Part shown: piece after piece, positions 3,411-63,830 of the stretch | Numbering within the stretch: position 1 is the stretch's first letter | Layout of the letters: each line of letters begins with the position of its first letter | NCBI RefSeq assembly: GCF_000208745.1 | Contig: NC_030856.1 | Span: 11,762,954 to 11,826,953 of the forward strand | Length of the DNA: 64,000 nt | From: Theobroma cacao | Lineage: Eukaryota; Streptophyta; Magnoliopsida; Malvales; Malvaceae | Direction of reading: 5' to 3' | The notes under the pieces: generated by a model | What the model was told of the DNA's origin: nothing | Seen by the model: the letters and a program-made list of their open reading frames with translations, nothing else | The model's database searches: none | Position numbers and translations under genes: made by a program

Positions 3411-4091
3411 TACTGGAAAAGGAAACATCGATTTTTGTAAAATGAAATATTTAGACAAGTTTCTCTAGAAGCTCAAGAATTGATTTTCAATGGTTAAAAA
3501 GATAATTCCTACAAGATAGAATTTCAAAACAAGTTATTGGAATTCTAAGAATCGACACTTGGGAGTCAAGAAGTCGATTCTCGCAAGTTTGGGTAGAAAA
3601 ATAAGCACAAAGAATCGATTTCTAAAGAAGCAAATATTGGTTCTTGGAGGACCAAAGGAAAAAAATCAAAAACTTGAAAAAGAAGGAAGAGATGAAATAA
3701 ATGGATAAGATTGGAGCGTCAAAGATCAAGTTCAAATTCAAATTTTAACACCTAACTACAGTGAATAATCGATACCTAGTGAAAGAAGAATCGATTCTTG
3801 AAAAATTGTAAAAGTGTCACCTTTGAACCAAGTTTAGAAGAATCAACATCTGGTAGGCAAGAATTGATTCTCAAACAAGAAGAATCGACACCTTAGGAAT
3901 GAAGAATCGATTCTCAAAAAATAGAAAACTCCAGACTTTAAGTGAGACAAGAAGAATCAACATCTGGAAAGGCAAGAATCAATTTTTAAACAAGAAAAAT
4001 CGACACCTTAGGAATGAAGAATTGATTCTTAGAAAAACAAAAACCTTCAGACCAAAGAAGAATCGATTCTCGAGAAGAAAAGTCAATTCTT
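3411..4091. repeat. Palindrome array GAATCGATTC in LTR family A
   Basis: At least ten full or decayed copies of AGAATCGATTCT are spaced about 25-60 bp apart, for example near 3574, 3611, 3786, 3903 and 4058. Decayed copies read gaatcAattc, gaatTgattc or agaatcgaCac. The array sits in the U3 region and ends about 75-90 bp before the two TATA boxes of the LTR. Confidence 0.88.
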
Positions 4092-4181
4092 AGTAGTCGT
4101 TAGACACAAAAAAGAAAAAGACAAGATCAATGGCTAGTTTCTCCGCCAAGTCATCCCTAATGGCTATAAACTTTTTCCAAG

Positions 4182-4190
4182 TATAAAAGG
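4182..4190 (+). promoter_or_regulatory. TATA box of LTR family A
   Basis: TATAAAAGG directly follows the palindrome array and precedes an A/G-rich segment of the LTR. A second TATAAA lies at 4165. The equivalent position in the 45055-46460 copy carries TATAAATA on the minus strand. Confidence 0.6.
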
Positions 4191-4530
4191 TACTTCTCCA
4201 ACACATTTTGGGCAAGAGAAGAGTTGAGAAAAAGATCATTTGATCAAGAATCGTATGAGATGAAGAAGAAGAGAAAAAAGAGAGAAAGACCAAGCTAAAG
4301 AAAGCCATTCATATTCTTCTAAAAAGCTTGTGAACTGCCTTGTGCTTCAAATTCTTTGTGTTTTCACTCACATCTTTTGTAATCATTCTTTAGCTCTACT
4401 AAACGCTTCCTTCATGTACTTATTAAGCAAAACCCACCTTCTAGAGGTATCATTTGCTTTGAGCTTGTAAGAGAGAAAAGTTATGCCTTAACCTTTGAAA
4501 GGCAATGTTGTAAAGGTTCTACTAGATCCT

Positions 4531-6071
4531 TGTTGTTGATTTCTCACGCAAGTGCACATATCATTAACAAATAATATAATAGAAAGTAGAATTCGTTCCC
4601 ACAGAGAATTGAATTAATTCCTAATTGCTAATTACTAAAATTATAATACCCTAATCTTATCCAAACAACCTAATTATTAAAAAGAAAAATTAAAACTAAT
4701 AACTAAAATTAATCTATCAGTAAAATTATTTTATTAAATTCGAGTGACTACCAGACCTAAGATTATGATATCCCTCAATACTTCATCTGATTATTGTCTC
4801 TCTTTCTTAACTTAGTTTAATGGATTAAGTTGTTAACCTAAAATCCTAATTTATTTACAAGTTTCTGTCGGGTTTCTTATAAAAATATCTTTCCCAATTA
4901 ACTTACTATATGTTTATGCAAATTAAGTTGAAGAAAGATTCATTAAGTTCGTGCTCTAATTTTAACTACGTATGGCTTATAGGTGTATGTCTACCCTATA
5001 TGCAAATGAAATCACCTAATCAATTAAGTGCTTTCGATCATATGCTATTTTATTCAAGTTTTACTTAAATCTCCTTCGTCAAGGTTTAACTTAGGTTTCC
5101 AATTCAATCTAATTCATGGCCAATCAATTAGAAGTATTAAGAACAGAATAAAATAAACAACTTAATTCCATCAAATATAAGCAAAAGAGAGATAAATAAA
5201 TAAGACAACGTATTAAGTTCAATCATAATCTTAGAGAAATAAGTTAGTTCCTCATCAAGTCACACATCATCATCAAATTAAGTTTAAACATTAAAATCAA
5301 ACTAAGAAAATAATAGAATAACAAAAAGATAATAGAACTTAAGAATTGTAATCTTGATCTTCCAAATCTTCTTGAATCCCTCAATTGCTTCTCAACTTCA
5401 ATGACTTTGCGGCTTGATTCTCAATTTTTAATTTGGTGTTTCGTTCCTCTCTAAAAGTCCTCCAAAAGGTTGTTTTTATGGAGCTTTGAAGTTAGACTAA
5501 GTTTGGTGAAGAAAGAAATCAAATTTAACTAGGAATTCCTCATCAAACTACATGAGCCATGGCCTACCTCCACCAAAGCTACGGCCTCGACCAATTAATT
5601 AGTAGAAATCATAATTACTCTAGGACTGCTGCAGTGTTTTAACTTTAACAAGATTTTTGACTACTTGCCATGCCCAACTAGATGAAGTCGTAAACATGAA
5701 AGTTGAAGTTTTTTGTCTTATCTTTCCAATGGTCTAAGAATTATCTTAATTGGAGTTTTGTAAAGGGAATTATGGTAAAAAAAATAAAATATGTGCAATG
5801 AAAGCCTACACCTCAAAATTGCTCTCATTCTTTTATTAAAAGTCTTCCTTCATTCAACACCTACAAAAGTACAAATAAATCAATAACAACTTATCTAAAT
5901 CACATTAACACCAAATTAAGTATAAAATTATCTAAGATTAGATTGACTTAGCTAAATTAATTAACTTAAGTAATTTAACTAAAACCCTCAAATTTCTATG
6001 CATTACCACAAGAACTAAGTTAAATTATTATCAAAATTAAACCCAAATAACTCTATATCATAAAGTTATCA
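4531..6071 (-). mobile_element. Solo LTR, family B, inserted in LTR family A
   Basis: Bounded by TG...CA and near-perfect 5-bp repeats (ATCCT at 4526-4530, ATTCT at 6072-6076). On the minus strand it begins TGATAACTTT and ends with a 'ctctgtgggaacga' block, then 'cacttgcgtgag' and AACAACA. The same end structure occurs in the 61259-62680 copy, which reads 'ccctgtgggatcgata' and 'acttgcgtag'. This conserved 3' segment is common to a widespread plant LTR family. There is no coding capacity. The surrounding LTR resumes at 6072 in the same repeat context ('ccttgaaaaggc'). Confidence 0.78.
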
Positions 6072-6990
6072 ATTCTTGAAAAGGCTGAGATTATGTCTAC
6101 TCCTTGAAAAGGCATATAGGTTTTGCTTTATCCTTGAAAAGGTTGAGGCTATGGTTGATCCGCAAAAGGCATGGGTTGTGCTTGCTCTAGTAAAAAGGTA
6201 GTGAAGGCTGAGGTTATGCTTGATCCGTGAAAAGGCATGGGTTATGCTTGCTCTAGTAAAAGGTAGTGTGTAAGGTTATGCTTGATCCTCTCGAAAAAGT
6301 AGTGTGTAAAGGTTATGCTTGAACCTTTAAAAGGCAGTTTTTATAGTGGATTGCAAACTCTTTAGAGAGCCAAGGGAGAGGATATAGGCACTTATGGAGA
6401 GAGCCGAACTTCTATAAATGATTTGTGTCTTTCTCTCTTCTCTTTACTCGTGAACTTGTGCTTTTGCTCTTTACTTTTCACTACCTCTTACTTGTGTAAT
6501 TTACTTTACTATGAAAATATTTAAGTATTTGTTTTCTAACTTGCTTTTTTCTTCAACTCAATCTTCAATTCACTTTTTATTTACTTTGATATACTTGTTC
6601 ACTTTGCTTTGAAGAGTTTTTAGAATTTCCTTTCTTATCCAACTTATGCTTTTTACTTTGAAGAAATTTTTAAAACTCACAGTTCACTCACTATTCACTC
6701 TTATACTTGTATGTTTTTACTTTTTTGTGAAAAGATTGGAATTATTGTTTTCAAATCTGTTTTCCAATTCATTCTTTAAAGGATTTGAATATTTGTTTTT
6801 GAACTTATTCTTTTACTCACTCCTCAAATCCTTTTTGATATGTTTGCATATTTTATTTTGAAGAGTTTTAAAAATTTGTTTTCAACTTATTTGTTCATTA
6901 CTTTTGGTTTGTTTCAAAAAGAAAGCAATTCATCCCTCCTCTTGGATATTTTCCTCATTATTATTTAGTTAACACATTTCTAACACAATT

Positions 6991-7900
6991 CATGTGGAGG
7001 TTCATCACGAATTCAAAATAGTTGTCTAATAGAGATTAGAGATCAAATCAATGTTTAACTCATGATCCATCTTAAAGCCCAATTACCCAAGCTTTTCCAT
7101 ATAGCTGAGCATTTTAAAGTAATGTGCCTTTGACAAAATTTCCTTTTGCCATCTTACAATAAAACAATTTCCTAAAAGTCTCATACCTCTTTGTACAACT
7201 TTGCTTAAAGAACAGTTCTCTTAGATGCAAAATCATACTTAGAGCATCCATGTTTTCAAAATCATACTTAAAGCATCCATGTTTTTCTGTTGCTTTTGAA
7301 GCTAAGGGGACATGCTATTTAGCATCACACATGCAGCAAGTTCATCATCATCATCTTTGTGATGCTAATCAGCATCCCACATTTTATCACAGTATTACTC
7401 AACAAGGACTAGTGGCCCAACATTCTCAAGGACATAAAGTTTCTACTCTTCCTTGAGAACTATTCTTAAGTTTTAATACCAATTTAAAAGGTTTGGTCCA
7501 ATAAGCTTATTTGCATCAAGCACACTTCACAAGGAAATATTGTTAGTCATTTTAATCTATAACCTAAGTAATATATAACGAACGTGTATAAGTTATTTAA
7601 TCATATAAAAGAATATAAGATAAGGTCTTTAAATTTTTTTTGAAAAGTACTTTTTTAGCACTAGAACCATTATTCCTTCAAAAGTCTCTATACTAACCAT
7701 TATAGATATCTATTGGCATATAAACATCTAGCCTATGCAACATAGAACATGAACAATTACAGATAACATTACCCTTCAATAAGTCATCGACGGCTTCGTC
7801 ACCCCTAACATGATCAAGTCATATGTATGAACAAGGTCTCAACACTTTTCCCAACAAAGCTAAAGTTGAGCTACAAAAATAATGCAACTACTTAAACACA
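6991..7900. other. Unclassified, probably old repeat DNA
   Basis: An open stretch at 7250-7456 (His-rich) has no recognisable domain and no convincing start context. The segment between the solo LTR and the LINE debris shows no gene I can support. It may be decayed retroelement sequence. Confidence 0.35.
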
Positions 7901-12303: not shown

Positions 12304-12559
12304 TGTGAAATCCCACCCTAAGTAAAAGGATAAATTAAGAAATTCTTAAGTGAGCATGTGAACACTTTTGTTTAAAACATTACACTTAGTTTTAAACCTT
12401 AGAAAAATTCTGTTTTGGAATACGTTGATGTTTGGCAAAATTAGATGTTGAAAAAAGGTCCAATTGGACAAGTTTCTAAGTGTTTTTTGTATACTAGAGT
12501 AAATGTATCTATACATGGTCTTCATGTCTCAATAAATTTAGTTTAGAAAGTTTTTAAGA

Positions 12560-12690
12560 AGAGATTTGAAGAACATGTATCGAGAGATTTGGATTTTTAT
12601 GAACATTTATCGATGCATAGCCAAATGTGTCGATAAAATTTTTCTAAAAGCCAATATATCAATACATGGACCCAATGTATCAATACATTT
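12560..12690. repeat. Palindrome array TGTATCGATACA in LTR family D
   Basis: Variants such as catgtatcgagag, tttatcgatgcat, tgtgtcgataaa, atatatcaatacatgg and tgtatcaatacatt follow one another at about 25-bp spacing and end 53 bp before TATAAATA. Several copies show the CG core changed to CA. Confidence 0.85.
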
Positions 12691-12742
12691 CATCATTTTT
12701 AGAAAATTAAAAGGGGTAAAAAGGTATTTTCACACCTTAGAT

Positions 12743-12750
12743 TATAAATA
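12743..12750 (+). promoter_or_regulatory. TATA box of LTR family D
   Basis: TATAAATA is preceded by 'ttcacacctta' and followed by 'tgccacat'. The related minus-strand LTR at 52090-52081 has TATAAATA in the same context, which supports a conserved promoter. Confidence 0.65.
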
Positions 12751-13027
12751 TGCCACATTTTTTTAGAGTTGGCAACCCTCAACCATTTTTGCAAGGTAAT
12801 TTCTAAACCTTAAACCCTCTTTAACCTATTTTCAACCCAAAACCTCATTTTTGATTATTTTAAGGCTTGGATTTAAGTTTTTAAGAAACAATGACATTTT
12901 TTAACTTTAAATCCTTGATTTATGGTTTTTCCAAAACTAAAGATGTTATTTTTATGCCCAGATTTTCTATTGAGTAGTAGAGCTCAAAGGTTTTGTGATT
13001 TTTCTTAGCATCTAAACTCACATAAAG

Positions 13028-13123
13028 TAAGGATGAAAGATTTATGGGTTCCTAAGCTTTATTTATGTTAAGTAGTAAGGATGAAAGATTTATGGGTTCC
13101 TAAGCTTTATTTATGTTAAGTAG
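13028..13123. repeat. Perfect 48-bp tandem duplication
   Basis: The 48-bp unit starting taaggatgaaagatttatgg and ending ttatgttaagtag occurs twice with no mismatch (13028-13075, 13076-13123). It is absent from the related LTR at 51640-52814, so it is recent. Confidence 0.95.
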
Positions 13124-13679
13124 TAGTAAGTTCAACTTAAAAAATTAGTTTCGATGAATCTAACTAGTTTCGACAGTGCTAGAAATGACTACTATGAAAT
13201 TATTAGACTAGGTAATGATTGTGATGTTGTTGAATGATTGGAAGCTGTTGGGAATTTCAAGGAATCCACTAGAGTGGAGTCATAATTGGAGCTAGACATC
13301 GAATCTCTAATTAGGTGAGTGGATACACCTCTTTAAGTATTTAATATGTAAAGTGGGCATAATTTTCATGGAAATAAATGTTTATAAGATGTTGGAATGT
13401 TATTTTCATAAATGACTTATTAAAGGACTTGAGTTTTAAGATTTTCAATTGACTTTCAAAGAGTATGCTTAAAGAACTTGATTTGATAATGATTTGTGAT
13501 ATGAGTGACAGAAATGATTTCAAGTTGTTTGCAAATCTACTATGCATGTAAATATCCTACTTTGTATTAGTTTTCAACAAAAGAGGGACAAGCCCTTTCA
13601 AATGTTTTCCTTTAAAATAAGATGAATGGTATAATGTACATGCTTGACATGGCGTAGCATGTAGGGTATGATGGATACA

Positions 13680-13845
13680 TAAGTTCCATTTATGAGATTA
13701 TGACATGTGTGCCATGAGATGTATGTGTTGAGAATATCATGTACACTATGGGCTAAGCATGTGAGTGATTTATGAGGTTATGAAATGCATGCCATGAGAT
13801 GTATGTGTTGAGATAGTCATATACACTATGGGCTAAGCATGATGA
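13680..13845. repeat. About 80-bp imperfect tandem repeat
   Basis: Two units share 'tgccatgagatgtatgtg' and 'acactatgggctaagcatg', lying one behind the other inside LTR family D. Confidence 0.8.
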
Positions 13846-20379: not shown

Positions 20380-20840
20380 TTTCTCGCTGCAGCGAGATTG
20401 AATTTCGCTGCAATGAGAAACTCTCGGGTTTGAGGGCCTTTCACCAGAACTGGTTCTCACTGTAGATAGAATGAATCTCGCTGCAGCGAGATAGTCACTG
20501 TAGCTTTTCGCTGCAGCGAAAAGGAATCTCGCTGCAGCGAGAAACTCTCTGTTTCATCAGCTGAATTTTGCTGAAGTGAGAAAGAATCTCGCTGCAGCAA
20601 GAAACCTTTTGTTCATTTTGCTATCTTGTGGGTTTTGCCATACTTTTCCATTTCATTTAAACCCTAGTGGAGTATGGACTTCCAACATGTTTGGGGATTA
20701 TCTAACTAAGTTTGAAATGATGAAATTTTGAGAGAAACCCTCATTCGGCTAATAACTTAAATCCCAACGTCGCTGCAGCGAAAATTCATTCTCGCTGCAA
20801 CAAAGATTTGTCGTTGCATTTGACTTGTTGGTGTATCACT
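20380..20840. repeat. Palindrome array CTCGCTGCAGCGAG in LTR family C
   Basis: Exact or near-exact copies lie at about 20382, 20476, 20506, 20527, 20587 and 20770. Decayed versions (cgctgcaAtgag, tgctgaAgtgag, gctgcaAcaaag) lie between them. Each core contains CTGCAG flanked by CG sites. Confidence 0.9.
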
Positions 20841-22386: not shown

Positions 22387-22589
22387 TGTAACCCCTCAAT
22401 TTTTATGTGAAAATAAAATGGTAACTTAGTTAGTGAGTTTGAGAAAAACTTTAAATTTGAAAGATCATGGAAAGAATTGCTTGGAAATCTACAATTTTGA
22501 AAGGTTTTAAGTTAAATGGGACAAATGAGGAATGTTAGAACCAAAAAGTATAAGTTTTGGGAAAAAATAGTGTTTTCATGAAAAAGTGT

Positions 22590-22800
22590 CTATACTTGAA
22601 GAACAAGTATTGATAATTAAAAGGTCGAATGCCTTGGGAAGCATTTTTGCGTAAAAATTATTGATATTTTGAAAGTAGAATGCTTTAGGAAACATTTTGT
22701 GCGAAAAGTATTGATACTTAGTACTTTGGGTGTGTTAAATAAGGACAGGCCACATGGAAAGTATTGATACTTTCCTAAAAGTATCAATATTGGAGTTAGA
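22590..22800. repeat. Palindrome array AGTATCGATACT, first cluster
   Basis: Decayed copies such as agtattgataatt, aaaattattgatatttt, aaaagtattgatacttag, aaagtattgatacttt and aaagtatcaatatt recur. In almost all of them the central CG is TG or CA. A second cluster lies at 24165-24275 in the same LTR. Confidence 0.8.
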
Positions 22801-24164: not shown

Positions 24165-24275
24165 AAGTATCAATACTTCATGAACAAGTATTGATACTTT
24201 TTGAACAAAATGGTTTTCGAAGGCATTCTGTACTAAAAATATCAATACTTGTTGATAAAGTATCAATACTTTCGC
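24165..24275. repeat. Palindrome array AGTATCGATACT, second cluster
   Basis: The series agtatcaatactt, aagtattgatactt, atatcaatacttg, aagtatcaatacttt has copies about 30 bp apart, with TG or CA cores. It lies downstream of the promoter part of the LTR. Confidence 0.82.
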
Positions 24276-31744: not shown

Positions 31745-34597
31745 TGTCACAGTCTAATCCTAGGCCACGACCGGCGCAAGGGCCCAATAGGCATAGCCCA
31801 CCAGGCCTAAGGAAGCTTCTCTTTCTTTAAGATCTAAAAGTCATAATTTCTAATAAATATTCTTTCGAAATTAAATCGTGAGAACTAAGTATATATATAT
31901 ATAACGTTTCCAAAATAGGGTTATCATTCATCAACCCTAAACGACATGGTTAATCAAACCAATATATAGAGTGCACAACAATCTCACGATTTACATTTAA
32001 GTAACTATATACACATGCAAAAGACCTTGACATCAGCGGAGTGACTCTGAGCGTGGGTACCGCTACTGGATGCCATGGTACCTACCAAATGGCGAATACA
32101 AATGGACACTTTAATCTAGTTCCCAACTACCTCCAAATCTGAAAATATGAAGTTAAAAAGAGTGAGTATAAACCCAGTGAGTGAACATAGGAAGGGAACA
32201 AGCATATGATACAGAAAGTCTTCGAAAACATGATGCACTCATTTAAAAAAAATGTAATTTTTTTATATTATGAACAAAACTCGATGTCATGTTGTTTTTC
32301 AACTCATTTTAAAACATTTTGGGAGTTTAACTTTCAACATTCAATGCAATCACATAATATTCTCTCTAACATTTCTATGGTAAGTGTAAACATGTATACA
32401 ACCACCGGTCATCAACTCATGTGCACTCCCATACCGCACAGAGTTGGAATCATCATCCTCCGATCATCAGTTCATGTGCACTCCCACACCGCACATAGCT
32501 GGAATCATCACACACCGGTCTTCAGCTCATGTGCACTCCCACACCGTACATAGTTGGAATCATCACCCACCGGTCATCAGCTCATGTGCACTCCCACACC
32601 GCACATAGTTGGAATCACCCGTCATCACCAGCATGTGCACTCCCATACCACACACACGCGATTACAATTATCATTCAACATTACATTTTAATGCATGGCA
32701 CACGTAACAACATGTAACAAGAATCTTTGCATAACATTACATCACATGCCACAAATCAATTGGCAATTCAACACAATATTTCAAATACGTAATTCATCAC
32801 ATTATACATTTAAAACATAGAAGTATCACTTGTGAAAAGCTTGTTCCCGTGCATAAATTTGAAAAGAGTCAACCAAGGATATTCTAGCATTTCATTCAAC
32901 ACATATGCATTTGTTCAAAACCTTTTAAATGCAAGTTCACTCACCGTACTATAGCGGGATATTACATCGCTATTTATTCAGAGGCGTATCTAGCTATTTC
33001 TACTTGCCGATTGCTCGTTATTTCCTTCGACACACCACCACAGTACATTCTCTTTACTTTTGGCACTTCGTAGCAACAATCCAAATTCAATATCTTTAGT
33101 GTACATCATTTCTACTTCTCTTTTTCCTTCAATCATGAATCCTTATTCAACTAACTTATATCTTCACACATTTTTACCAAAGTTGTCTTTATCCTTCACT
33201 TGCATAATCTTTTAAATTATAATTACCAGCAACTTATTTATGACTCTAACATCTATATTAACCTTTTCTAGCCATTTTCGTTCAAATTTGTCTTATATTT
33301 TCACACATAACCCACATATATGGCAGTGACACTCATTCTCACTTTCACTCAATTATTTCTAAGTTTACATACATCCTTATCTATCTAACTTTCAATACTT
33401 TACTTCTCAATCCTCCATCCACATTCTTTTTTTTTTTCATTTCTTTCAAATAACATGCCATACAAACTTAACAATTTTTCAACTACATAACAATAACTAT
33501 TTCTCAAGATTTCTCAACTATATTTAAAACATCATTCGTTTTTTATTTTTTTACTTTTATGGTTGCTTGACCCGCACATACACTTCATTGTTCCTTCAAA
33601 ACATTAATCATCAAGCTGCCAAAATGATTCACACATTATTTCTCCAAAAATTTAACCAATCGTGAGCTTAAAACACAAAAATCCTTACCTTATGTCTCTT
33701 GAATCTTGAGGCCCATTTGATATTTCTTCTATTACTCTTGAATCACTCAATATCCAAGGCTTCCACTTTTCTCTCTTTTCTTTCCTTAGCCGATTCTCTC
33801 TATTTTTCCTTTCAAATGCATGGTGGTAAGGGTGAAAATGGCGCGGGAGCATGAAAATGGTGTGGGAGCATGAAGGAGAAGAAGAAACTATCTTTTGGGT
33901 GGATAAGAACCGGTCATGGGATAAGGATGAAGAGTCAAAGCTTCCAAACGATGAAGAGTCAAAGCTTCCTCTTGAAGCTTTGACCAAACTAATGGTAAAA
34001 TTACCATTTTGCCCTCTAAGGTTTTCACCATTTTTAATTGTATCCTCCAACAATCTTTTAATTCCAATTTCTTTCCATTTGTCTTCCTTAACATTTGTAT
34101 CAATAAAATATCAAGTTATGCTTCAACATGGTATTATCGTAATATTTAAATATTTAATTACCCACGCTAGCTTTATTTAATAAAGACACGTGGGCTCCAT
34201 TAACATCATTTTTTTTTTGAAATTTCCTCGTTCTTTTTCTCCCCCACTTAGATTGACCATATACTCTTTCTTCATGAAAAATTTCGACACTGAATAAAAT
34301 ATTAATATTGTAATATTATTTTATTAATAAAATATTATTTTATTCTAAATTTTTCACTTGTCTCCTAGGCACCCAAAATGTCTTGTTATGCCTCGATTCA
34401 CTTTCGAATCACTTTTTATATCGTTAATTCATCCTCAATAAAAAAAATATTATTATTTAATTGTTATTGCTTCTTGTGCAGAATATTTTACTCCAGAATA
34501 TTCCGTCCACCCTTCATCACTTTTAAACACTCTAATTAACCTCAATTTGTATCCGATAAGTTCTATTAGTCAACATATCAAAGTACAAGGTGTTGCA
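31745..34597 (-). mobile_element. Full 5' LTR of the nested element, mosaic of families C and E
   Basis: The LTR is 2853 bp. Bases 31745-32930 follow family C: 'ggcccaataggcatagccca', 'agcggagtgactctgagcg', 'gtgagtataaacccagtg'. Bases from about 32940 to the end follow family E (16590-18191): 'aggcgtatctagctatttct', 'ctaatggtaaaattacca', 'ttgaccatatactctttctt'. The changeover lies near 32940. A minisatellite (32400-32660) lies in the family C part. Open frames at 32206-32717 and 33685-34180 are repeat translation, not genes. Confidence 0.82.
32400..32660. repeat. Minisatellite of about 60 bp, four to five units
   Basis: The unit 'catgtgcactcccacaccg' + 'cacatagttggaatcatc' + 'acccaccggtcatcagct' repeats four times with one degenerate end copy. 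The core 'tgtgcactccc' is the reverse complement of the core of the array at 20088-20205. Confidence 0.92.
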
Positions 34598-37500
34598 ATA
34601 GATGAAAAGGTAGTTGTTGCAGATCATATTGAAGCTGCTAATGAACTCTTATTCATGGCCAACACTACTGTTGTTGCAAAAAGGAAAAACTTATGGTTAA
34701 TAGACAATGGTTGTTCCAATCACATGATAGGAGATGATCAAATCTTTACTACCTTCAATAGAAACTTCAAGGCAAAAATGGAGATTGGCAATAGACTTTA
34801 TTCAAAGATCATTGGCTCGGGAACGATAGCAGTGGAGACTTCATCTAGGACAAAGTTCTTATCAAAGATGTATTAAATTTCTGAGGTAACATAAAACTTG
34901 CTCCGCGTTGGGCAATTTCCTGAAAATCATCATGACTTGCTGTTTAAAGATAAGTTTTGCACAATCTTTGATCTCGCTGGTGAGAAAATGTTAATTGTAG
35001 AAATGAAGAATAACACTACTCTTCAGATTAGATGAACATTGAGCATAAAGAGTACTATAGTAGAGCTAGTGATACTGAGCTTTGGCTAGAAGGTTAGGTC
35101 ACATTAATTATGCCTCTTGTTAAAGGTATTTCAAGCATATTACCATCTGAACATGTTTGTGAGACTTGTATGCTAGGAAAACATAACAAACTTTTTTTTT
35201 TCCAAAGCCAAGTAATTGGAAAACCTATGACAAGCTCCGACTTGTTCATTTTGATGTTGGAGGACCCATGAGTACTCCTTGCTGAATGGTAGTCTTTAAT
35301 ATCTTATTTTCATATATGACTATACAAGGTTATCTTGGATTTTTTTTTTTTGAAGCAAAATCTAAAGTGTACAACCATTTCATCAAATTTAAGGCCTTAG
35401 TTGAGAATGAATCTGAACAAACCTTAAAGATTCTAAAGACAGACAATGGGTCAAAGAATTGCTCAAATGAATTTAAAAGTTACTTAACTCTTAAAAAGAT
35501 CAAACACCAATTGATAGTACCCTATAATCCTCAACAAAATAGGGTCTGTGAGAGAAAGAATCAAACCATTATTGAGATGGCTCACTGTTTACTTTATGAG
35601 AAAGGATTGTCTAAGTCTTTCTGGGTAGAGACAGTCAATGTTGCAGTGAGTTTACTTAATCTATTTCCAACCAGAGCACTTTAGTGTAAAAATGCTTATG
35701 AGGCTTGTTGTGGCTCAAAACCATTTATCACTCATCTAAAAGTCTCTGGTTGTACTTGTTTTGCTAAAATTCATGATGACAAAGGATTAAGCTTGATCCC
35801 AAGTCTCAAGAAACAATTCATCTTGGATTTAGTGAAACTTCCAATGGGTAACAATTGTACAATGTTGACTGCAAGAAATTTATTATGTGCAGAGATGTCA
35901 AATTTGATGAGGATCTTAGATGGAGTTAGGAGAAGAACACTATTGAAAATTTAGACAACTTAAACATTGTTGGTGATGTTTTCTTGCATTAAGATAATCA
36001 ATTAGATGATGAAGAAGATTAGAATTTAGTTGTCAGAGGAATGAGAACACTACAAGATATATACAACAGATGTAATGCTGCCATTGTTGAGCCTACAACT
36101 TACACTAAGGCTAATGAGAATGATGAATGGAAGAAAGCAAAGAACACAGAGACGGAAATGATCAAGAAGAATGGTACTTGGTTACTAGTTGACAGGCCTG
36201 CTAATCAGAAGGTTATTGGTGTCAAGTGGGTTTATAGAACCAAACTCAGTGCAAATGGATTAGTAAACAAACTAAAAACTAGGTTGTGCATGGATTAGTA
36301 AACAAACTAAAAACTAGGCTAGTGGTCAAAGGAAATTCACAAGTTTATGGGGTTGATTTCTTTGAGATATTTGCCCCAGTAACAAGACATGATACTATAA
36401 ACTCTTAACAACTCTAGCTACTACGGAAAGTTGGAAAATTTTGCACCTTTATATCAAGTCTGCGTTCCTAAATGGTGTCATCACTGAAGATATATATGTT
36501 GAACAACCTGAAGGCTTTGTGTAAATGGGAAAGGAAGACAAAGTTTGCAAGCTTGTTAAAGCTCTTTTACAAGTTGAAACAAGCTCCAAGGGCCTCGTCT
36601 GAGAGAATTGACAATTATCAAGTGAGAAAAGGTTTCATACGCAATATAAATGAACCCATTTTGTATGTGAAGAACATTAATGGCTTTGTAACTCTTATAG
36701 TCTCGCTCTATGTCAATGACCTTCTTTTGACAGGGCCAGACAGTTATGTTTTAAATGATTTCAAGACGCAAATGAAACTTGAATTCAATATGACAGATTT
36801 GGGGGAGACGAGTTATTTTCTTAATACGGAATTTATACCATCTCCTAAGTTTATTTACATTCATCAAAGTAAGGAGCTTTTGAAAAGGTTTAATATGGAA
36901 GCTTGTAAAATGGTTGATACACCATTAGTCTCAAATGCAAAGTTCTATTGCAATGATGAAGCTCCTACTGCTATAAGCACAACTTACAAATGCTTAATTA
37001 GGAGTTTGCTATATTTAACAGCTTCTAAGCTTGATATTATGTATTTTGCAAGTGTGTTATCGAGACATATGCAAGCACCATTTGAGATTCACTTCTTCGC
37101 TGTCAAAAGGGTGCTTAGGTACATCAAAGGAACCACTGGTTATGGTCTTAAATTTAGTAAGAATGAAAGTAAAGAATTGGTTGGCTGCTGTGATAGCGAT
37201 TGGGCAAAATGCCTTGATGATTCAAAGAACACAAGCGGGTTTTGTTTCTCATTTGGAAGTGTAGCTTTCTCATGGAACTTCAAGAAACAGGGTATGTTAG
37301 CCTAATCTTCTATCAAGGCGAAGTACATCGCCAGTTTCTGCTGCCAATCATGTTTTGTGGCTAAGGAAAATTCTTGGTGTTTTGGGGTTTAAATAGAAAG
37401 AAGGAATTGTATTGTGGCTTGATAATCAATTAGCAATAGCCATTACCAAGAATCCTGTGCAATATGAAGGAACAAAGCATATTTGAGTCAAATTCACTCC

Positions 37501-45794: not shown

Positions 45795-46350
45795 GCCACT
45801 TGAATCAACTTTGTCATTCTTCTGGAATCAACCATTGCCAATATGAGAAGTGGATTCTTTTGTACCCTAGGGCATTCTATTTCCAAGGAATTGATTTTTC
45901 CATTCTTCACAAGTCGATTATTCCTGCTTTAATTTTGTGCCCGATGCCCTCTATTTTCCAAGAATCGATCACTATTCCACTGAGTACTCTATTTTTCTTG
46001 TACTTGAGCATCACTTTGAAATTTCAAATTTGTGTTTTCCCACTCAAAATATCCCCTTTTAGCTTCTTCAGCAAGTTTCCAACTTTTCTTAATTTTGCCT
46101 CAAGGAATTGATCATTGGAGACTTGAGAAGTCGATTCATTCTATTCAATGCTTCTTCTTTGTGCTTTTACATTCATAGGAATCAACTTTTGCTTTTTTAC
46201 AATTTGATTCTTTCAATCCAGTAGCTTTCTATTTTCAAAAAAATCAATGGTTACTTCTTTGACAAGTTGATTCCTTCTTATTACATAGAAGAAATATTGA
46301 TTTCCCTTTTGCTAGAATCGAGACTTCACTTTTTAGAAGTCAATTCTTCT
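45795..46350. repeat. Palindrome array GAATCGATTC, second occurrence
   Basis: Copies such as aagaatcgatcact, aaggaattgatttttc, gaagtcgattcatt, agaatcgagac and aagtcaattctt are distributed over 550 bp. The cluster lies about 60 bp upstream (minus sense) of TATAAATA at 45737-45729. Confidence 0.82.
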
Positions 46351-46577: not shown

Positions 46578-48493
46578 GGTATGCTCGAGGTGATAGGGAG
46601 GAACATGAATGACATTTTAGGATTGTGCTCTAGGTGTTGAGAGATCACCAACTGTATGCCAAGTTCTCCAAGTGCGAGTTTTAACTGGATAGCTTTAGTT
46701 TCTTGCGTCATGTGATTTTCAAAAAAAGAGTTATGGTAGACTCAAAGAAAATAGAGGCAGTGGAGAAATGGCCAAGGCCAATCTCTGTGATGAAGATTCG
46801 CAGCTTTTTATGTTTAATAGGATATTATAAGTGGTTTGTTAAGGATTTCTCTAGACTTGTAGCACCAATGACTAGATTGACTCAAAAGAATGTGAAGTTC
46901 TAATGGAACGAGGCTTGTGAGGAGAACATTGGAAAGCTTAAGAATTATCTTACTTTAGCTCCCCTACTTAGCCTATCACAGAAAGTAAGTGGATGTATGG
47001 TTTATTATGATGCCTCACGTGTTGGTTTAGAATGTGTGTTAATGCAACATGGCAAAGTCATAGCTTTTGCCTTTAGACAGTTGAAAAAGCATAAGAAAAA
47101 CTATCCCACCCATGACTTAGAGATAGATGCCATTGTGTTCGAGCTTAAGATTAGAGACATTACCTTTATGGGGAGATGTGTGAGATCTACACAGATCATA
47201 AGAGTCTCAAATACATCTTTGAGCAAAGGATCTCAATCTTAGGCAACGTTGGTGGATGAAGTTGGTTAAGGACTATGATTGTATTATCTTATACCATTCT
47301 GGCAAGGCCAATGTGGTAACTGATGCTTTGAGTCGAAAGTTTATGGGGAGTTTAGCCCATGTCACCGTTGGTAGGAGACTTTTGGTGAGAGACATCTATG
47401 GTTTAGGAGATATGGGAATACATCGTAAGGTCGATGATATTAATGCTATATTAGCATACTTTCGAGTTAGGCTTATGATACTTGATCGTATTAAAAAGCA
47501 CTTAGGATAAAGATGAATGGGTGACTAAGGCCTTAGATGACACTCAAAGGAGTAAAAGGCAATATTTAATTAGAGATACCGATGGATTACTCTACTATGG
47601 AAAAAGTCTATGTGCCAAATTTGGATGGTCTAACGAGGGAGATTCTTGAGGAGGCACATTTGTCAGCTTATGTAGTACATCCGGGATCCACCAAGATACA
47701 CCATGATTTAAAAGAGGCATATTGGTGGGAAGGAATGAAGAAGGATGCAGCCAAGTTCATGGCTAAGTGTTTAATATGCCAATAGGTTAAGGCGAAGCAT
47801 CAGAGGCCCACAGGTTTACTATAGCCTTTACCCATTCCTGAATGGAAGTGAGAGCACATATTTATGAACTTTGTGACAAGGTTATCTCGCACTAGTAAAG
47901 GGTATGATTCCATTTGGGTCATCGTGGACAGATTGACCAAGTTTGCTCATTTTTTACCAGTGAAGGTTACCCACGGGGTGGCCCAATATGCAAGGCTATA
48001 TATTGAGGAGATAATGCGATTGCATGAAGTTTTAATTACCATAGTCTCGAATAGAGGTACCTAGTTTACTAGTCAATTTTAGAGTAAGTTCCAAGAGGTT
48101 ATGGGAACCAAGATAAGTTTCAACACTGCTTTTCATCCTCATACCAATGGACAATTTGAGAGGACTATACAAACCTTGGAGGATAGGTTACGGGCTTGTG
48201 TTGTTGATTTTGGAGTTACTTGAGATCAACACTTGCCTTTGATAGAGTTCGCCTATAACAACAGTTACCATGCTAGCATTGAAACGGCACCTTATGAGGC
48301 ATTATATAGGTATAAGTGCAGATCACCTATCGCTTGGTTTAAGGTTGGTGAAAAGAAGCTACATGGACCGAAAATGGTTCAAGAGGCCATCGACAAGATT
48401 TGATTGATTCGAGATAGGTTGTTGATAGCTCAAAGTCGACAAAAATATACGTTAACCATAAGCGTCGAGACTTAGAATTTGAAGTGGGTGAAT
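46578..48493 (+). pseudogene. Tekay/Del-type Gypsy pol: RT end, RNase H, integrase
   Basis: The order is RT tail (YAKFSKCEF and FLRHVIFKKRVMVDSKKIEA, about 46650-46760), the RT-RNase H linker (IRSFLCLIGYYKWFVKDFSR), RNase H ([36 protein letters not shown]), the integrase zinc-finger end (KDAAKFMAKCLICQ), and the integrase core (NFVTRLSRTSKGYDSIWVIV, TIVSNRGT, FERTIQTLEDRLRAC). Both catalytic aspartates of the integrase core (usually DFV and SDRG) read Asn. Stops occur at several places. At 48493 the sequence is cut by a solo LTR with the TSD TGAAT; the C-terminus resumes at 50594. Confidence 0.9.
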
Positions 48494-50593
48494 TGTCTAT
48501 CCCAAAAAGCGTGTTAAAGAGGGGTGAATAGCACTTTTGGAATAACACTAAAATTCCTTCCAAGTAAAAAGTTGATTAAACGAATTTGAAAATAAAAGTT
48601 TAAAGCTTGTTGGAGGAATGATTTAAGTATTAAGAGTAAGAAGAAAATAAAAAAGGTAGACAAAACACAATGATTTATAGTGGTTCGATCCTCTTGACCT
48701 ACATCCACTACCTTGATCTCTTAATCAAGGATTTTCAAACCAATTCACTAAAATTAATAAAATTCTCAAGCTTCCATCAAGCTTTTACAATTGCTTTTCA
48801 CAAGCTCAGCCACAATCTTTAACAATGGTTTTTCATGAGATCAACCAAAACCCAAAATGACTTTTCATAGGCTCAACCACAACCTTGAACAATGATTTTT
48901 CACAAAATCAACAAAAACCCAAAACTAACTTTTCTAAGGCTAAGTTATAACCTATAACAACAACAAAGCTGACCCAAGCTTAATCTACCTTTTAGAGTAT
49001 TTCTCACACTCTAAGTAAACAAGAAATAGAGAAAATATGAAGTACAAATGATCACCTAGCTGATCTAAGATGTACTAAGTTAAGCTCAAACACTTTTTCA
49101 AAGGATGGGAGTGAAATACAAGTGTAAAGAGAAGGTTTTTAGTCTTCTAAGCTCAAAATCACTTTGGATAACTTGTTTATATGATTTTTGACTGTTTGAG
49201 AGGCTTTAAATACTTGAAAAATCACTTTTGAAGTTTAGAGACAAAAAGTAGCCGTTTCTGGCAATTATTTTGTCTTTTGTGCTTGAATTCAAATTTTCTG
49301 ACAGTGAGCTTTTAGTTGGTTAACTATACTTCTTAATCGATTAAGTCTTTTCTATCTCGCAGTCTGCTTTACTCTGTTAATCAGTTAAGAAAAACTTTAA
49401 TCGATTAAGAGTTTACTGTTTCTAGAGCAACTAGCTTCACCAACTTTTCTTTGTTTGATTAATTCTTCTCTTAGCTTGGTAATGCTGATATTCCATTTCC
49501 CTTAAATAGCAAATGAGATATGTTTGTCATCCGACATTTCTTGAATTGTTCTTTTATAAATTTGACTCCCTTCATTTTGGATCTTTACTTTTGGATTTTA
49601 GCTAACTAACTACCTTGGTTAACCAACTAAGAGGCTTCTGTTTATATCTATCATCTTCTTAATTGATTAAATCTTGTGTTAACTAGTTAAGACCTTTTTG
49701 TCTGTCCTTAGGGTAGCGCCCAAAATTGCTTTAATTGATTAAGAATTTGTGTTAGTCAGTTAAGACTAATTTGTCTTCATCAAGGCTCGTTCTTCTTTGC
49801 TTGTTTAACTAATGAACCCATCTTGCAACTGAACAAACATCTTGACTTGCTTTCAAATGCCAAATATATTAATGAATTTAAGCTTTCTCCTACACATTTA
49901 AACAATATAATTAGACACCAATGAATGAGAATGTTTTGCTATCATCAAAAACATATAGAGTCAACATTCTCTATTTCTTATTTTTGATGATGACAAAACA
50001 CTCCTAGATTAAGAGTGCATTTTTTATGTTCAATATGAATACTTCAAATCTTTATGCATAATGAGTTACTCCCCCTTAGTCAATACATCTAGTTTTCTTT
50101 AAAGATTGCAATACACTATTTATAATATCAACAATAGCTAAACAAGATATACAATGTCCACAGTAGCTAAATAAGATATATTGAATATCTATAATAACTA
50201 GCACATAATATTCAATAAAACCATAACTAAGCATCAAACACATAAATTAAACATGAAAACCTATCACACTCAATTTAAAATAATTTTCCTTCTCTCCTTT
50301 TATGTCATCATTAAAAAAGATATTCAAAATTCTCCCTTAATGAGTGCATCTGGATTGTCCTTTAATCTTTAAATTAGACTTTAATGAATAAGAATCATAA
50401 GCACTCATATACTTAAGTCATAAAAGCTTATAAATATAGTTCAGTAACTTCACGAGTCAAGCTTGTAACTATGTAAGAACAAATGTATAGAAGTTAAATT
50501 GTTTCAAGAACTTGTCAAGGATCACTTAAATAATGTTCAAGAAAATTTGATCATTTTGTCATAATCAAAACTATAATAATTTTAAAGCTAACA
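48494..50593 (-). mobile_element. Solo LTR, family A, 2100 bp, inserted in Gypsy integrase
   Basis: TGTCTATCCC ... AAGCTAACA ends are flanked by the perfect TSD TGAAT (48489-48493, 50594-50598). On the minus strand the beginning TGTTAGCTTTAAAATTATTA matches the start of 3211-6985. A palindrome array TTAATCGATTAA (49320-49760) is followed in minus orientation by the TATA-like TATTTAAAG at about 49212-49204. There is no gag or pol. It splits the integrase between the VGE codons and the VFLKVSPTKG segment. Confidence 0.92.
49320..49760. repeat. Palindrome array TTAATCGATTAA
   Basis: Copies: cttaatcgattaagt (49332-49346), ttaatcagttaag, tttaatcgattaagag, ttaattgattaaatc, ttaactagttaagac, tttaattgattaagaa, ttagtcagttaagac. 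The core is ATCGAT or a decayed version (ATTGAT, ACTAGT, GTCAGT). It lies about 110 bp upstream, in element orientation, of the TATA-like sequence. Confidence 0.87.
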
Positions 50594-51064
50594 TGAATAT
50601 GTTTTCTTAAAGGTTTCACCTACTAAGGGGATCATAAGATTTGGTAAGAAGGGCAAGTTAAGCCTAAGATAGATTTAACCTTTTGAGATCTTAGAAAAAG
50701 TCGGAGCAGTGGCTCATAAATTGGCATTATCTCTAAATCTTTCTAGTATTCATCTAGTGTTTCAAGTGTCTGTGCTTCGCAAGTACAACCCTGACCCATC
50801 TCATGTGATTCATTATGAGGAAATCCACTTAGGTGATGATCCGTCATGTGAGGAAATGCTAGTAAAGATTTTGGATAAACAAGTAAAACGACTGCATACC
50901 AATGATGTAGCTTCAGTGAAAGTCCTTTGGCACAACCACTCTGAGGAATTGGGAAGTTGAGGATAAGATGCGCACAAAGTACCCCCACCAATTTCAAAAC
51001 TAAGGTAAGTAACTTTTGTTTTAAATTCGATGATGAATTTTTCTTAAGGGGGGGGGGGGGAGAA
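50594..51064 (+). pseudogene. Gypsy integrase C-terminus and polypurine tract
   Basis: VFLKVSPTKGIIRFGKKGKL, then FEILEKVGAVAHKLAL, then LSSIHLVFQVSVLRKYNPDP, then EEMLVKILDKQVKRL are typical for the C-terminal integrase/chromodomain region of Tekay/Del elements. One stop follows KLSLR. The tail is followed by AA-G13-AGAA (51046-51064), the polypurine tract directly before the 3' LTR. Confidence 0.9.
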
Positions 51065-52144: not shown

Positions 52145-52275
52145 TGAATCAATATATTTGGACCATGTCTCGATACACTTGGTTTTGAAAAAATTGTATC
52201 GATAAATAATGAACATGTATCAATACACGACCATATGTATCAATAAATTATGAACGTATATCAATACATTGGAAA
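52145..52275. repeat. Palindrome array TGTATCGATACA, second occurrence
   Basis: Copies aatatatttgg, tgtctcgatacactt, ttgtatcgataaat, atgtatcaatacacg, atgtatcaataaat and gtatatcaatacattgg are spaced about 20-28 bp apart. Two cores keep CG and the others read CA. Confidence 0.85.
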
Positions 52276-52814: not shown

Positions 52815-54492
52815 AAACCATGTTCCATCAATTTCTCTACTACTTCATATCATGTTCTCATTCATAACTTATACATAATCTCCCTAGAGTCTAACCTCTA
52901 TAGTTTTCCTAAAAATCAATTAGAACTCAAATATTTATAAGTGGTAGTCCGTCCTAACTCAAAGCAAATAGGGTTTAATCCCCACTATCTTGGATTACTG
53001 TGTGCAAATTAAGTGGCATTTTGTCTCACTCATACAGAGGATAATGGTACATTCCTCACTATCTCATATTTCTCTATTTGTGTAGTACATGCCTCACATC
53101 TAACCCTTATATGCGTGTGGTACAATGCCCCATATCTGGCCCTCATATGTGTAAAGAATTTAACATATCCATAACTTGTAACACCTTCAACACAAATCAT
53201 ATTTTACAAATCTCATAGGGTATGTGGAACTATATCACATACAAATCTCAAATAGCATGCATCACATGCTCATATACATATCGCATAATCATTCCATAGG
53301 CTTATAAGTGGGAATGTCTACATCCATCTAGACACCTTATCTAACATACATGCATTTCATACTTATTATAACAACTTGAACTCATTTTGAAGGAAACCAT
53401 TGAAAAGGCTTGTTCTATCTTATTGATAGTTAATACATAGTAGAATATTTACATACATAGTAGGTTCAAAACTTTCTTGAAATCATTTGGATTTAAACCT
53501 TTGAAATTATTGTTATATAAACAATATTTGAATCATGAAAGATAAACACCTCAATAAATCCTGCTTTACTTTACATAATAAAATACTTGAAACGGTGTAT
53601 CTACTCACCTTGAAGCACTTAACCTCTACTAAAGCAAAACTTCGCTTTAGAGAATTTTTTAGAGTTGCGACAGCACCAAAACATTCAACAATCATCAATA
53701 ATATTACTTAAACCACAAATCATGTAGGAATCTTCCTACGCTAATTCAAAAATTGTTGAGTTCGATTAAATTTAACTTTCTAGCTTAAACCCACTATTCT
53801 TCACTTAACTAGTAGTATAGAAATTTAAATCGTTGTTATCTCCTTATCTTGGTGAGCCACAAAAGAGTAAAACTTCTAGAAATTCTTAACCCCTTAGGAA
53901 AACACAAAATCTGTTGACATATCTAAAATCAGTAATAGAAATCAAGGGTTTGAAAGATTAAAAGTTGGAAACTTTACCTTTGATAGTTGGAAAAACCCAA
54001 GCCAAGTTTCAAATCTTCGAAAATGGAAATTTTTGGCAAAATAATGTAAGAAAGTGTTGAAAGTAGAAAGAAATGTGAAATTAGGCGACTGAGGTTTCAA
54101 ACTAATGAAAATATGCCTTTTAGGGTAATTTTTGAGTGAGAAAATACTAATTTCTTTTATTTTTGTGAAAACGGTAGCAAGTATCGATATATTGGAGAAA
54201 GTATCAATACTTGAGTTTTTGAGTTTTCATGCATCGATATTTATTCATCTAAATCCTTTTGAAAGCTTTTTGGGTAGAAAGTATTGATACTTGTCTATCA
54301 TATATTGATACTTTTGTTCCAAAATGTAAATTTTCACTTTGAAAATACATTCTTTTGACCTATATTTCTTTCGTAAGAACTTGTACACTTAAAAACTTGA
54401 AATTAGCCCTAAAACATGTTTAAATTTGCTCACCAAGTAGGATTTTACTTAACTAATCTCTACCTAAGATAAGGGGTTTTACAATATGAGTC
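52815..54492 (-). mobile_element. LTR fragment, family D-prime
   Basis: In minus sense it starts TGTAAAACCCC at 54492. It has the AGTATCGATACT cluster (54315-54180) and later a 'tagtggggattaaacccta' block also found in family D. It breaks at 52815, where another family D LTR begins in the same orientation. No TSD is identified, so it may be truncated by that insertion. Confidence 0.75.
54178..54318. repeat. Palindrome array AGTATCGATACT, third occurrence
   Basis: aagtatcgatatatt, aagtatcaatacttg, tgcatcgatatttat, aagtattgatacttg and atattgatactttt are spaced 20-45 bp apart. CG is kept in two copies and changed to CA or TG in the others. Confidence 0.85.
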
Positions 54493-55490: not shown

Positions 55491-55499
55491 GCTTTCTCT

Positions 55500-59231: not shown

Positions 59232-59303
59232 TTCTTTCTTTCTTTTTTCAGTGTTGGTTTACCTAGCACACTCGGAAAAGTGAATGTAAATCATCAGGCA
59301 TAT

Positions 59304-59313
59304 GCATATATAT
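59304..59313 (-). promoter_or_regulatory. TATA box of the coiled-coil gene
   Basis: CTATATATAT on the minus strand lies about 80 bp upstream of the first ATG (59231), in a reasonable core-promoter position. Confidence 0.5.
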
Positions 59314-59319
59314 AGTTCG

Positions 59320-62680: not shown

Positions 62681-62739
62681 CTTACCAGCAATGACATTCC
62701 TTACAATCACATTTCCTACAATGTGATTGCATTGTAAGG

Positions 62740-63380
62740 CACCAAATGCAACCTCAATTAGAAAGAAAAGTTGCAAGAAAGGATTTTGCAAAGAATTTTT
62801 CATTAATAAAATTGTAGTTACAAAGCCAACTTGTATATCCAAATGTAAAATAGTCCTAACAAAATTTAACAAAAAGGGGCAAAAGTATCCATTAAATATT
62901 TACAATAGCTTCGGTTACTATGGTACGGTAATTATAGCAAGGGTAAAAGGCTGTAAAGCAATAGCTGCAATAATAGAATACTAATTATAGTACACTAACT
63001 AACATAACTAACTAGCTAATAAATTATTATAAATTTAAAATTACTCTTAATACTCCCCTCAATATGAGTATAGATATTAAGAATACTCATCTTGCTCAAC
63101 AATTTGTGGAAAAAAAACCATGGTTATAAAGCTTTGGTGAATAAATTTGCCAGTTTTGAAGTTCTAGGAAATTAATTGGAAGAGATAATCCATTCAAGTA
63201 CTTTTGTCTACCATGAAAGGATCATCTAGTTCAATGTGCTTGATCTTATCATGAAAAATTGAATTTATGCAAATGTGGAGAGTTGATTGGTTATCACAAA
63301 ACTATTGGAAAAATAACGAAGCATAGAAACTATTCAAGAAAGTCTGAGGCATGAAACATTGTCCTTAAGGATAATTCTGT
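62740..63380 (-). pseudogene. 3' end of a Copia: RNase H tail and part of 3' LTR
   Basis: On the minus strand 63300-63050 encodes the end of a Copia RNase H/tail: FVITNQSTLHICINSIFHDK, then IKHIELDDPFMVD, then QTGKF- and SIL-like pieces with stops. It is followed by GAGGGGAGTATTA, the polypurine tract (63062-63049), and an A/T-rich LTR starting near 63010. The host usually shows CDNQSALHIAANPVFHERTK at this place. The upstream part of the element is not present, because another LTR-like sequence begins at about 63388. Confidence 0.7.
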
Positions 63381-63600
63381 CTTTTCAGAATGTGAAACTC
63401 GATGCAAAAAGACTGTAACAGTTGTCTCCCAAGATTAATAGATTCTTCCTTATTAGTTTACACAAATTATCAAGGATACAAAAATAATAGAAAAATTAAA
63501 AATAAGAAAAAATCCAACAAAATAGGGAAATGAGGGAAGTAGAGAAAAGGAAGATAGGAAAGTTAAGAAGAAATGATGTGACAATTGAGGTGGAGGTTGG

Positions 63601-63610
63601 TATTTATAGG
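63601..63610 (-). promoter_or_regulatory. TATA box of LTR family G
   Basis: CCTATAAATA on the minus strand lies about 50 bp downstream of the ATAACGTTAT array. A pyrimidine-rich leader follows ('cacatcatttcttcttaact' in minus sense). Confidence 0.55.
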
Positions 63611-63654
63611 CTAAAGATAAACAAAAATCAAGAATAACGTTGTAGAAAATCAAG

Positions 63655-63830
63655 AGAAAATTATAACATTATATAACATTCTGAAAGACTGAGTCTATAA
63701 TATTCTATAACGTTATAAAAACTGATTCAATCAAAGACTAACTCTTTGCCATGAAAAATTATAACGTTATACGACATTCTAGAAGACTGAGTCTAAAACA
63801 TTTTGTAACGTTACAAAGACTGAGTCTGAT
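63655..63830. repeat. Palindrome array ATAACGTTAT
   Basis: Units such as 'ttataacattatataacatt', 'ctataacgttataaa', 'attataacgttatacgacat' and 'ttgtaacgttacaaa' are each followed by 'ctgaaagactgagtct'-like segments, at about 50 bp spacing. The core AACGTT contains a CG and reads AACATT in decayed units. Confidence 0.85.

What the first reader, a model, noticed from the sequence alone, without database searches (positions are those of the whole stretch)
3411..63830. Family-specific palindrome arrays in several LTR families
At least seven LTR copies contain an array of one short palindrome, and the motif changes with the family: GAATCGATTC (3411-4091, 45795-46350), TGTATCGATACA (12560-12690, 52145-52275), AGTATCGATACT (22590-22800, 54178-54318), TTAATCGATTAA (49320-49760), CTCGCTGCAGCGAG (20380-20840), ATAACGTTAT (63655-63830). 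Spacing is about 20-60 bp. Unrelated sequences thus share the same design: many copies of a 10-14 bp dyad with TCGA, CTGCAG or ACGT in the centre. I know of no description of this as a general LTR module. I infer a protein-binding, hairpin-forming or methylation-sensing function.
Basis: partly seen in the sequence, partly recalled or inferred. Interest (0 to 1): 0.88.

Follow-up and report, generated by a model that had tools for sequence, protein, structure and literature searches.

The report
Paired palindrome arrays in retrotransposon promoters
Several families of jumping genes in this plant genome carry, in their control regions, arrays of one short mirror-symmetric DNA word, often set in pairs two turns of the double helix apart, which looks like a landing pad for paired proteins; a similar feature was already known in one group of such elements.

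Summary
The arrays are real, though most copies are imperfect. Scans that know no motif recover the strongest ones and find more in 20 arbitrary stretches of the same genome. In genome copies the motifs exceed shuffled sequence about 15-fold (family B) and 480-fold (family C).

Genome-wide, exact GTATCGATAC pairs number 457 (reversed-letter control 0); of the 50 listed, 33 lie 19-23 bp apart. TAGTCGACTA pairs number 261 (control 0); all 50 listed lie 20-22 bp apart.

Homologous LTRs carry palindromes differing by symmetric two-base switches. In family B the array ends about 56 bp before a TATA motif.

The families span Copia (Sirevirus-like) and Ty3/gypsy. Palindromic repeated motifs upstream of TATA are published for Sireviruses (PMC2829016), so the idea is not new; gypsy occurrence, the two-turn doublet and symmetric switching I did not find in print. 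Best reading: upstream enhancers for dimeric DNA-binding proteins paired on one helix face.

The parts
3403..4089 (+). Family A array, GAATCGATTC with degenerate partners, 14 near sites; TATAAAA follows at about 4182
   Evidence: 18 genome copies
45802..46346 (-). Second family A array, strongly decayed, 10 near sites
   Evidence: not seen in unbiased scans
12504..12687 (+). Family B array, TGTATCGATACA, 7 near sites; TATAAAT follows at about 12743
52145..52268 (-). Family B array, TGTATCGATACA, 6 near sites; TATA at about 52088 on the minus strand
20383..20804 (+). Family C array, CTCGCTGCAGCGAG, 10 near sites in an LTR of a Ty3/gypsy family
22585..22791 (.). Family D array, AGTATCGATACT, 6 near sites
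24166..24270 (.).
54180..54312 (-). Family D array, AGTATCGATACT, 5 near sites; flank homologous to family B LTRs
   Evidence: not seen above chance in unbiased scans
49312..49808 (-). Family E array, TTAATCGATTAA, 10 near sites; LTR homologous to Sirevirus-like LTRs with TTAGTCGACTAA
63634..63814 (-). Family F array, ATAACGTTAT, 7 near sites, spacing 10, 29, 34, 54; TATA at about 63608 on the minus strand; element unclassified

Best explanation
Each array is an upstream enhancer (U3 operator) of an LTR promoter. One palindrome is the site of a protein homodimer. Two dimers sit side by side on the same face of the DNA, two helical turns apart, and several such pairs are strung along roughly 100-700 bp ahead of the promoter, giving cooperative activation. 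Different families use different dimeric proteins or different members of one class. When a family changes partner, both half-sites of its copies change together. Where the centre is CpG the array is a methylation target in silenced copies and decays to TG or CA. Shown here: arrays, spacing, symmetric switching, position before TATA in family B, the one-hit CpG decay pattern, presence in two superfamilies. Inferred: protein binding, cooperativity, activation, methylation.
For: Doublets at 19-23 bp: 67 of 125 adjacent spacings in B, 51 of 118 in C, 8 of 15 in D, 7 of 12 in E; genome-wide 33 of 50 listed GTATCGATAC pairs and 50 of 50 listed TAGTCGACTA pairs. Spacing classes, one vote per family and class (40), have best period 10.4 bp, 0 of 5000 random sets as strong. 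Centre distance stays at two turns while palindromes run from 10 to 18 bp. Symmetric switches: outer pair T/A in 156 of 196 B sites, A/T in 13 of 20 D sites; inner pair G/C in 15 of 20 sites of L005, L006, L016 and A/T in 5 of 9 at 49.4 kb, in homologous LTRs. Family B: a TATA motif 54-58 bp after the last palindrome in 19 of 23 copies. B centres CG 74, TG 65, CA 50, TA 3 where 44 TA are expected if hits were independent.
Against: Family A shows no 19-23 bp spacing at one mismatch (0 of 51), only with two mismatches (50 of 115 under 70 bp); F is spaced 10 bp. Periodicity without the doublets is weak (31 votes, p=0.03) and families B/D/H and E/E2 are related. Arrays of C and D have no TATA motif within 350 bp save one row each, L006 and 49.4 kb have none. 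Two LTRs have no array, so it is not obligatory. Within-doublet complementarity (B p<0.0005, C p=0.025; 28 of 33) is also what a hairpin predicts. No factor is identified.
Confidence: 0.55

Rival explanations
1. RNA hairpins. Two facing palindromes fold into a 10-14 bp stem in the transcript (U3 is at its 3' end) and serve packaging, dimerisation or 3' end formation, or feed small RNAs that silence the element.
For: Array RNA folds far better than shuffles in four of five arrays (z -5.1 to -9.1); facing flanks of doublets are complementary in 28 of 33; small RNAs map to palindromic LTR regions of maize Sireviruses (passages).
Against: Centre distance is constant while palindromes run from 10 to 18 bp, so the loop would have to shrink in step. 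Array A does not fold better than shuffles (z -0.9). Further spacing classes follow the helix period, which a hairpin does not need. Folding of palindromes is expected whatever their role.
Confidence: 0.2
2. By-product of local duplication: a short palindrome and its spacer were copied repeatedly by slippage and carry no function.
For: Family A copies differ in array length while flanks persist; a 115 bp tandem duplication lies at 3836-4052; repeats of 73 bp recur in L006.
Against: The same spacing recurs in families without sequence similarity, both half-sites switch together, and the 50 listed TAGTCGACTA pairs have 26 distinct spacers; but 15 of the 22 ten-base spacers chain into one cluster at two mismatches, so they are not independent.
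Confidence: 0.13
3. VANC-like system: the arrays bind an element-encoded protein that removes silencing from its own family.
For: Family-specific motifs in non-coding regions that diverge between related families, as for VANC targets (passages of PMC5735166); L006 has an extra doublet between pol and a post-pol ORF, as the 2010 paper reports upstream of ENV.
Against: The gypsy element L061 showed no ORF of 80 codons or more on its plus strand between integrase and 3' LTR. The post-pol ORFs of L005 and L006 show no DNA-binding domain; one has a sub-threshold ATHILA ORF-1 match, E 0.0011. L005 has no linker doublet in the 600 bp looked at. VANC21 motifs as printed are not palindromic.
Confidence: 0.07

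Closest known systems
Sirevirus repeated motif (RM), Bousios et al. 2010, PMC2829016 (section 9 whole, other passages read)
   Same: Palindromic motif repeated many times in the LTR, upstream of TATA, motif differing by element; Tnd-1 motif ACAATCGATTGT resembles families A and E; extra copies upstream of the ENV gene, as the L006 linker doublet.
   Different: There reported as Sirevirus-specific within a Ty1/copia set; here also in Ty3/gypsy families B and C. CGG-CCG core absent here. The terms 'spacing' and 'helical' occur there only in reference titles, so no doublet rule was seen; the supplement was not read.
Maize Sirevirus LTR palindromes as small-RNA hotspots (Bousios et al. 2016, not held; known from passages in PMC10760457 and PMC5311732)
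   Same: Clusters of palindromes in the cis-regulatory part of the LTR with strong predicted secondary structure.
   Different: One superfamily, GC-rich motif CACCGGAC...GTCCGGTG; no small-RNA data could be examined here.
VANC target motifs of VANDAL transposons (PMC5735166, passages)
   Different: DNA transposons; motif YAGTATTAY is not palindromic; the binding protein is element-encoded and known.

Membership tests
Sirevirus repeated motif (family E) | Borne by a Sirevirus (Copia) element | tested here: met
   L005/L006: RVT_2, SH3_retrovirus, CCHC gag, AGGGGGAG tract, Met-tRNA primer site, polyC before the LTR end; criteria from PMC2829016, matched by eye
Sirevirus repeated motif (family A) | Borne by a Sirevirus (Copia) element | tested here: inconclusive
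   LTR pair, but no coding match at E 1e-6 in the one element examined; promoter words resemble L005 by eye
Sirevirus repeated motif (families B, C) | Borne by a Sirevirus (Copia) element | tested here: not met
   C: RVT_1, RT_RNaseH, Integrase_H2C2 between LTRs of L061. B: gypsy SH3 beside 2 of 20 copies; one other copy, L056, has a Copia RT fragment nearby instead (32%)
Sirevirus repeated motif | Palindromic, many copies, in the LTR | tested here: met
   copy number 4-17 by family and cut-off, not always the 8 or more of the paper; L005 reaches only 4, equal to its shuffle maximum
Sirevirus repeated motif | Array a short distance upstream of TATA | tested here: inconclusive
   B 19 of 23 at 54-58 bp, A 16 of 20 at 80-199 bp, F 26 bp, L005 122 bp, L016E 238 bp; not in C (1 of 23), D (1 of 6 rows), L006, 49.4 kb
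Sirevirus repeated motif | CpG-rich array (CpG island) | tested here: inconclusive
   CpG observed/expected 0.79-1.33 in five arrays, 0.45 in E, window 0.43
Sirevirus repeated motif | CGG-CCG core | tested here: not met
   none of the motifs here has it; the paper lists Tnd-1 as the exception
VANC/VANDAL anti-silencing | Element-encoded protein that binds the motif and lowers methylation | not testable with these tools
   no candidate domain in post-pol ORFs; binding and methylation need experiments

The most novel reading that the evidence does not exclude
The palindrome is an address code. A diversifying class of dimeric DNA-binding proteins, used by both Copia and Ty3/gypsy elements, reads dyad pairs set two helical turns apart, and LTR families escape or capture regulators by switching both half-sites of all copies in concert. 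The design would then be a convergent regulatory module of plant LTR retrotransposons in general, with Sirevirus repeated motifs as its first noticed case.
Probability: 0.3. Interest if true: 0.85.

Novelty: new variant of a known kind. Interest (0 to 1): 0.62.

Why it matters
It would turn a lineage curiosity (Sirevirus repeated motifs) into a design shared by both LTR superfamilies of one genome, with a geometric rule that can be tested directly: two-turn spacing of dyads. It offers an entry to an open question, which host or element factors switch plant retrotransposons on and why LTRs diverge so fast, and a simple way to predict enhancers in uncharacterised LTRs.

Tried and rejected
An all-10-mer spacing autocorrelation at one mismatch gave only a weak excess: at 20-21 bp 9 palindromic pairs against 2.3 scaled non-palindromic in the 200 kb sample, and 1 against 0.7 in the window. 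CpG-tolerant scanning makes false arrays of CGCGCG-type words at 32 kb and near 20 kb and of TTTTCGAAAA-type words at 1.1 and 60.5 kb; dropped. In the random stretches the flagged windows of L001, L002, L013 (three motifs), L015 and L018 were dropped as simple-repeat-like or low-count; 5 of the 31 windows with five or more copies are the L013 repeat. Viral-contig scans for doublets gave 9 and 4 stretches; of these, L082 and L087 were read and look like intergenic repeats of non-plant contigs, so there is no evidence from another plant. Paper searches; the six motif strings occur in 5 papers, none on LTRs by title. Bousios 2016 is not held. No DNA search with the D, E or F arrays and no pattern search for CGCTGCAGCG or ATAACGTTAT pairs was ever answered.
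Full report
What was checked. The window lies in a 324,851,811-base genome of 431 contigs; from memory that size fits Theobroma cacao Criollo, but no call tested the name. Because those motifs were chosen by eye, I ran scans that know no motif. With one mismatch, 8 of 635 windows of 600 bp hold five or more copies of one ten-base palindrome, against 0 of 7,620 shuffled windows; they are the 3.4 kb and 20.4 kb arrays. The 49.3 and 63.7 kb arrays reach four, as do 7 shuffled windows. The 12.5, 22.6 and 52.2 kb arrays emerge only when CG, TG and CA are treated alike. The 54.2 and 45.8 kb arrays emerge in neither.

Independent stretches. Twenty stretches of 10 kb at round-number positions on ten contigs gave 31 of 1,900 windows with five or more copies, against 0 of 9,500 shuffled. 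Of the 31, 26 belong to six arrays: TTAGTCGACTAA (L006, L016), AGTATCGATACT (L009), TGTATCGATACA (L016), CTCGCTGCAGCGAG (L014) and CTTAATTAAG inside TTGTCTTAATTAAGACAA (L009); 5 belong to an ACATATATGT repeat in L013. So the pattern is not a quirk of the window.

Family copies. DNA searches returned 86 matches for the 3.4 kb region, 48 for the 12.6 kb region and 82 for the 20.4 kb region, each with 40 candidates scored out of 407, 405 and 3,118. I fetched 18, 20 and 19 further copies, plus one LTR-pair locus each for A and C, choosing long matches; the queries contained the arrays, so prevalence cannot be read from them. Family A: 5-17 near sites per sequence against 1.1-2.7 shuffled, 19 sequences. 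Family B: 158 sites against 10.4, 22 sequences. Family C: 159 against 0.33, 23 sequences.

The doublet rule. In the window the sites pair up at about 20-22 bp in five motif families. In the collected sequences, adjacent spacings up to 80 bp fall in 19-23 for 67 of 125 (B), 51 of 118 (C), 8 of 15 (D), 7 of 12 (E), 3 of 9 (E at 49.4 kb), 2 of 8 (G, CTTAATTAAG), 3 of 7 (H, L016 TGTATCGATACA), 0 of 6 (F) and 0 of 51 (A). In A the partner is degenerate: at two mismatches 50 of 115 spacings under 70 bp are 19-23. F has 10 bp pairs. A search of the whole genome for exact pairs is the cleanest test. GTATCGATAC with a second copy 0-30 bases on: 457 matches, 0 for the reversed-letter control; of the 50 listed, first by coordinate, 33 are 19-23 bp apart. 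TAGTCGACTA: 261 matches, control 0; of the 50 listed 46 are 20, 3 are 21 and 1 is 22 bp apart. Exact GAATCGATTC pairs gave 0, in line with its degenerate partner. Further spacing classes lie near 30, 40, 51, 62 and 73 bp; one vote per family and class (40 votes) gives a best period of 10.4 bp in a scan of 8-14, with 0 of 5000 random sets as strong, and p=0.03 without the doublets. B, D and H are related, as are the two E sets, so the votes are not fully independent, and some classes (16, 27, 34, 75 bp) are out of phase.

Symmetry. Family B (TGTATCGATACA) and D (AGTATCGATACT) LTRs align outside the array at 58-60% over 500-600 bp, yet the outer base pair is T/A in 156 of 196 B sites and A/T in 13 of 20 D sites. 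Genome-wide doublets show a third form, GGTATCGATACC. Family E LTRs align at 61-79% and carry mostly TTAGTCGACTAA in L005 (3 of 4 sites G/C), L006 (6 of 8) and L016 (6 of 8), but mostly TTAATCGATTAA at 49.4 kb (5 of 9 A/T). Both halves have changed together, which a mere direct repeat would not need. Inside doublets the facing flanks are complementary in 28 of 33 (permutation p 5e-5).

Elements. Family C lies in the LTRs of a Ty3/gypsy element: weak gag, RVP_2, RVT_1, RT_RNaseH and Integrase_H2C2 between LTRs of about 1.5 kb, 89% alike. Of 20 fetched family B copies, L044 and L047 have gypsy SH3 sequence a few hundred bases before the array-bearing LTR; L056 has a Copia RT fragment (32%) instead, perhaps a nested insertion. 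Family E is Copia of Sirevirus type: RVT_2, SH3_retrovirus, CCHC gag, AGGGGGAG tract, polyC signal and Met-tRNA primer site. Family A has an LTR pair (83%) but no coding match; its promoter words resemble L005 by eye, so Sirevirus type is likely, not shown. F was not classified. A gypsy LTR whose coding part is 82-87% like family C (L007) and 625 bp of a non-Sirevirus Copia LTR (L012) have no array; L005 reaches only its shuffle maximum.

Position and chemistry. In family B a TATA motif starts 54-58 bp after the last palindrome in 19 of 23 copies (in 2 of these it is the second such motif). In A one lies 80-199 bp on in 16 of 20, in F 26 bp, in L005 122 bp, in L016 238 bp; C has one in 1 of 23 copies, D in 1 of 6 rows, L006 and 49.4 kb none within 350 bp. 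B centres are CG 74, TG 65, CA 50 and TA 3, where 44 are expected if hits were independent: one deamination removes the CpG and spares the other strand, as expected if CG methylation marks silent copies. CpG is enriched in five of six arrays and not in E.

How it most likely works. I favour enhancer arrays read by protein dimers in pairs. The centre distance stays at two turns while palindromes run from 10 to 18 bp, which fits helix phase better than a hairpin loop. The proteins are unknown; from memory, GARP, homeodomain and bZIP factors prefer GAT, AAT and ACGT cores, but nothing here tests that. Hairpins remain possible (z -5.1 to -9.1 in four of five arrays folded, -0.9 in A) and may be what small-RNA silencing sees, as reported for maize Sireviruses (passages).

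What is known. Bousios et al. 2010 (section 9 whole, other passages) describe palindromic repeated motifs upstream of TATA in Sirevirus LTRs, including ACAATCGATTGT in Tnd-1, and extra copies upstream of ENV. L006 shows such a linker doublet, decayed, at 7523/7543 before its post-pol ORF; L005 shows none in the 600 bp looked at. The gypsy cases, the two-turn doublet and the symmetric switching I did not find in the listings and passages seen, from a library that lacks most subscription journals.

Noticed in passing
window 46646-50693: A decayed Ty3/gypsy pol is interrupted between about 48445 and 50592 by a stretch that aligns to Sirevirus-like LTRs and carries the 49.4 kb array; target-site duplication not checked.
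   Followed up: partly
window 35331-37302: Copia integrase and reverse transcriptase remains (RVT_2 at 36472-37302), unrelated in position to any array.
   Followed up: partly
window 32402-32617: 55 bp tandem repeat, about 3.9 copies, in DNA that partly aligns to the family C LTR region.
   Followed up: no
L009:792-973: Array of an 18 bp palindrome TTGTCTTAATTAAGACAA without CpG, spacings 21, 27, 21, 29, 29; bearing element unknown.
   Followed up: partly
L082:6934-7210, L087:11062-11261: Clusters of GTATCGATAC-like palindromes between ORFs of IMG/VR contigs; non-plant, origin not studied.
   Followed up: partly
L005:2198-2758, L006:8085-9245: Post-pol ORF region conserved between two Sirevirus-like elements (63-64% in tblastn); L005 part has a sub-threshold ATHILA ORF-1 match (E 0.0011).
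   Followed up: partly
window 13026-13125: Perfect 48 bp tandem duplication downstream of the family B array.
   Followed up: no
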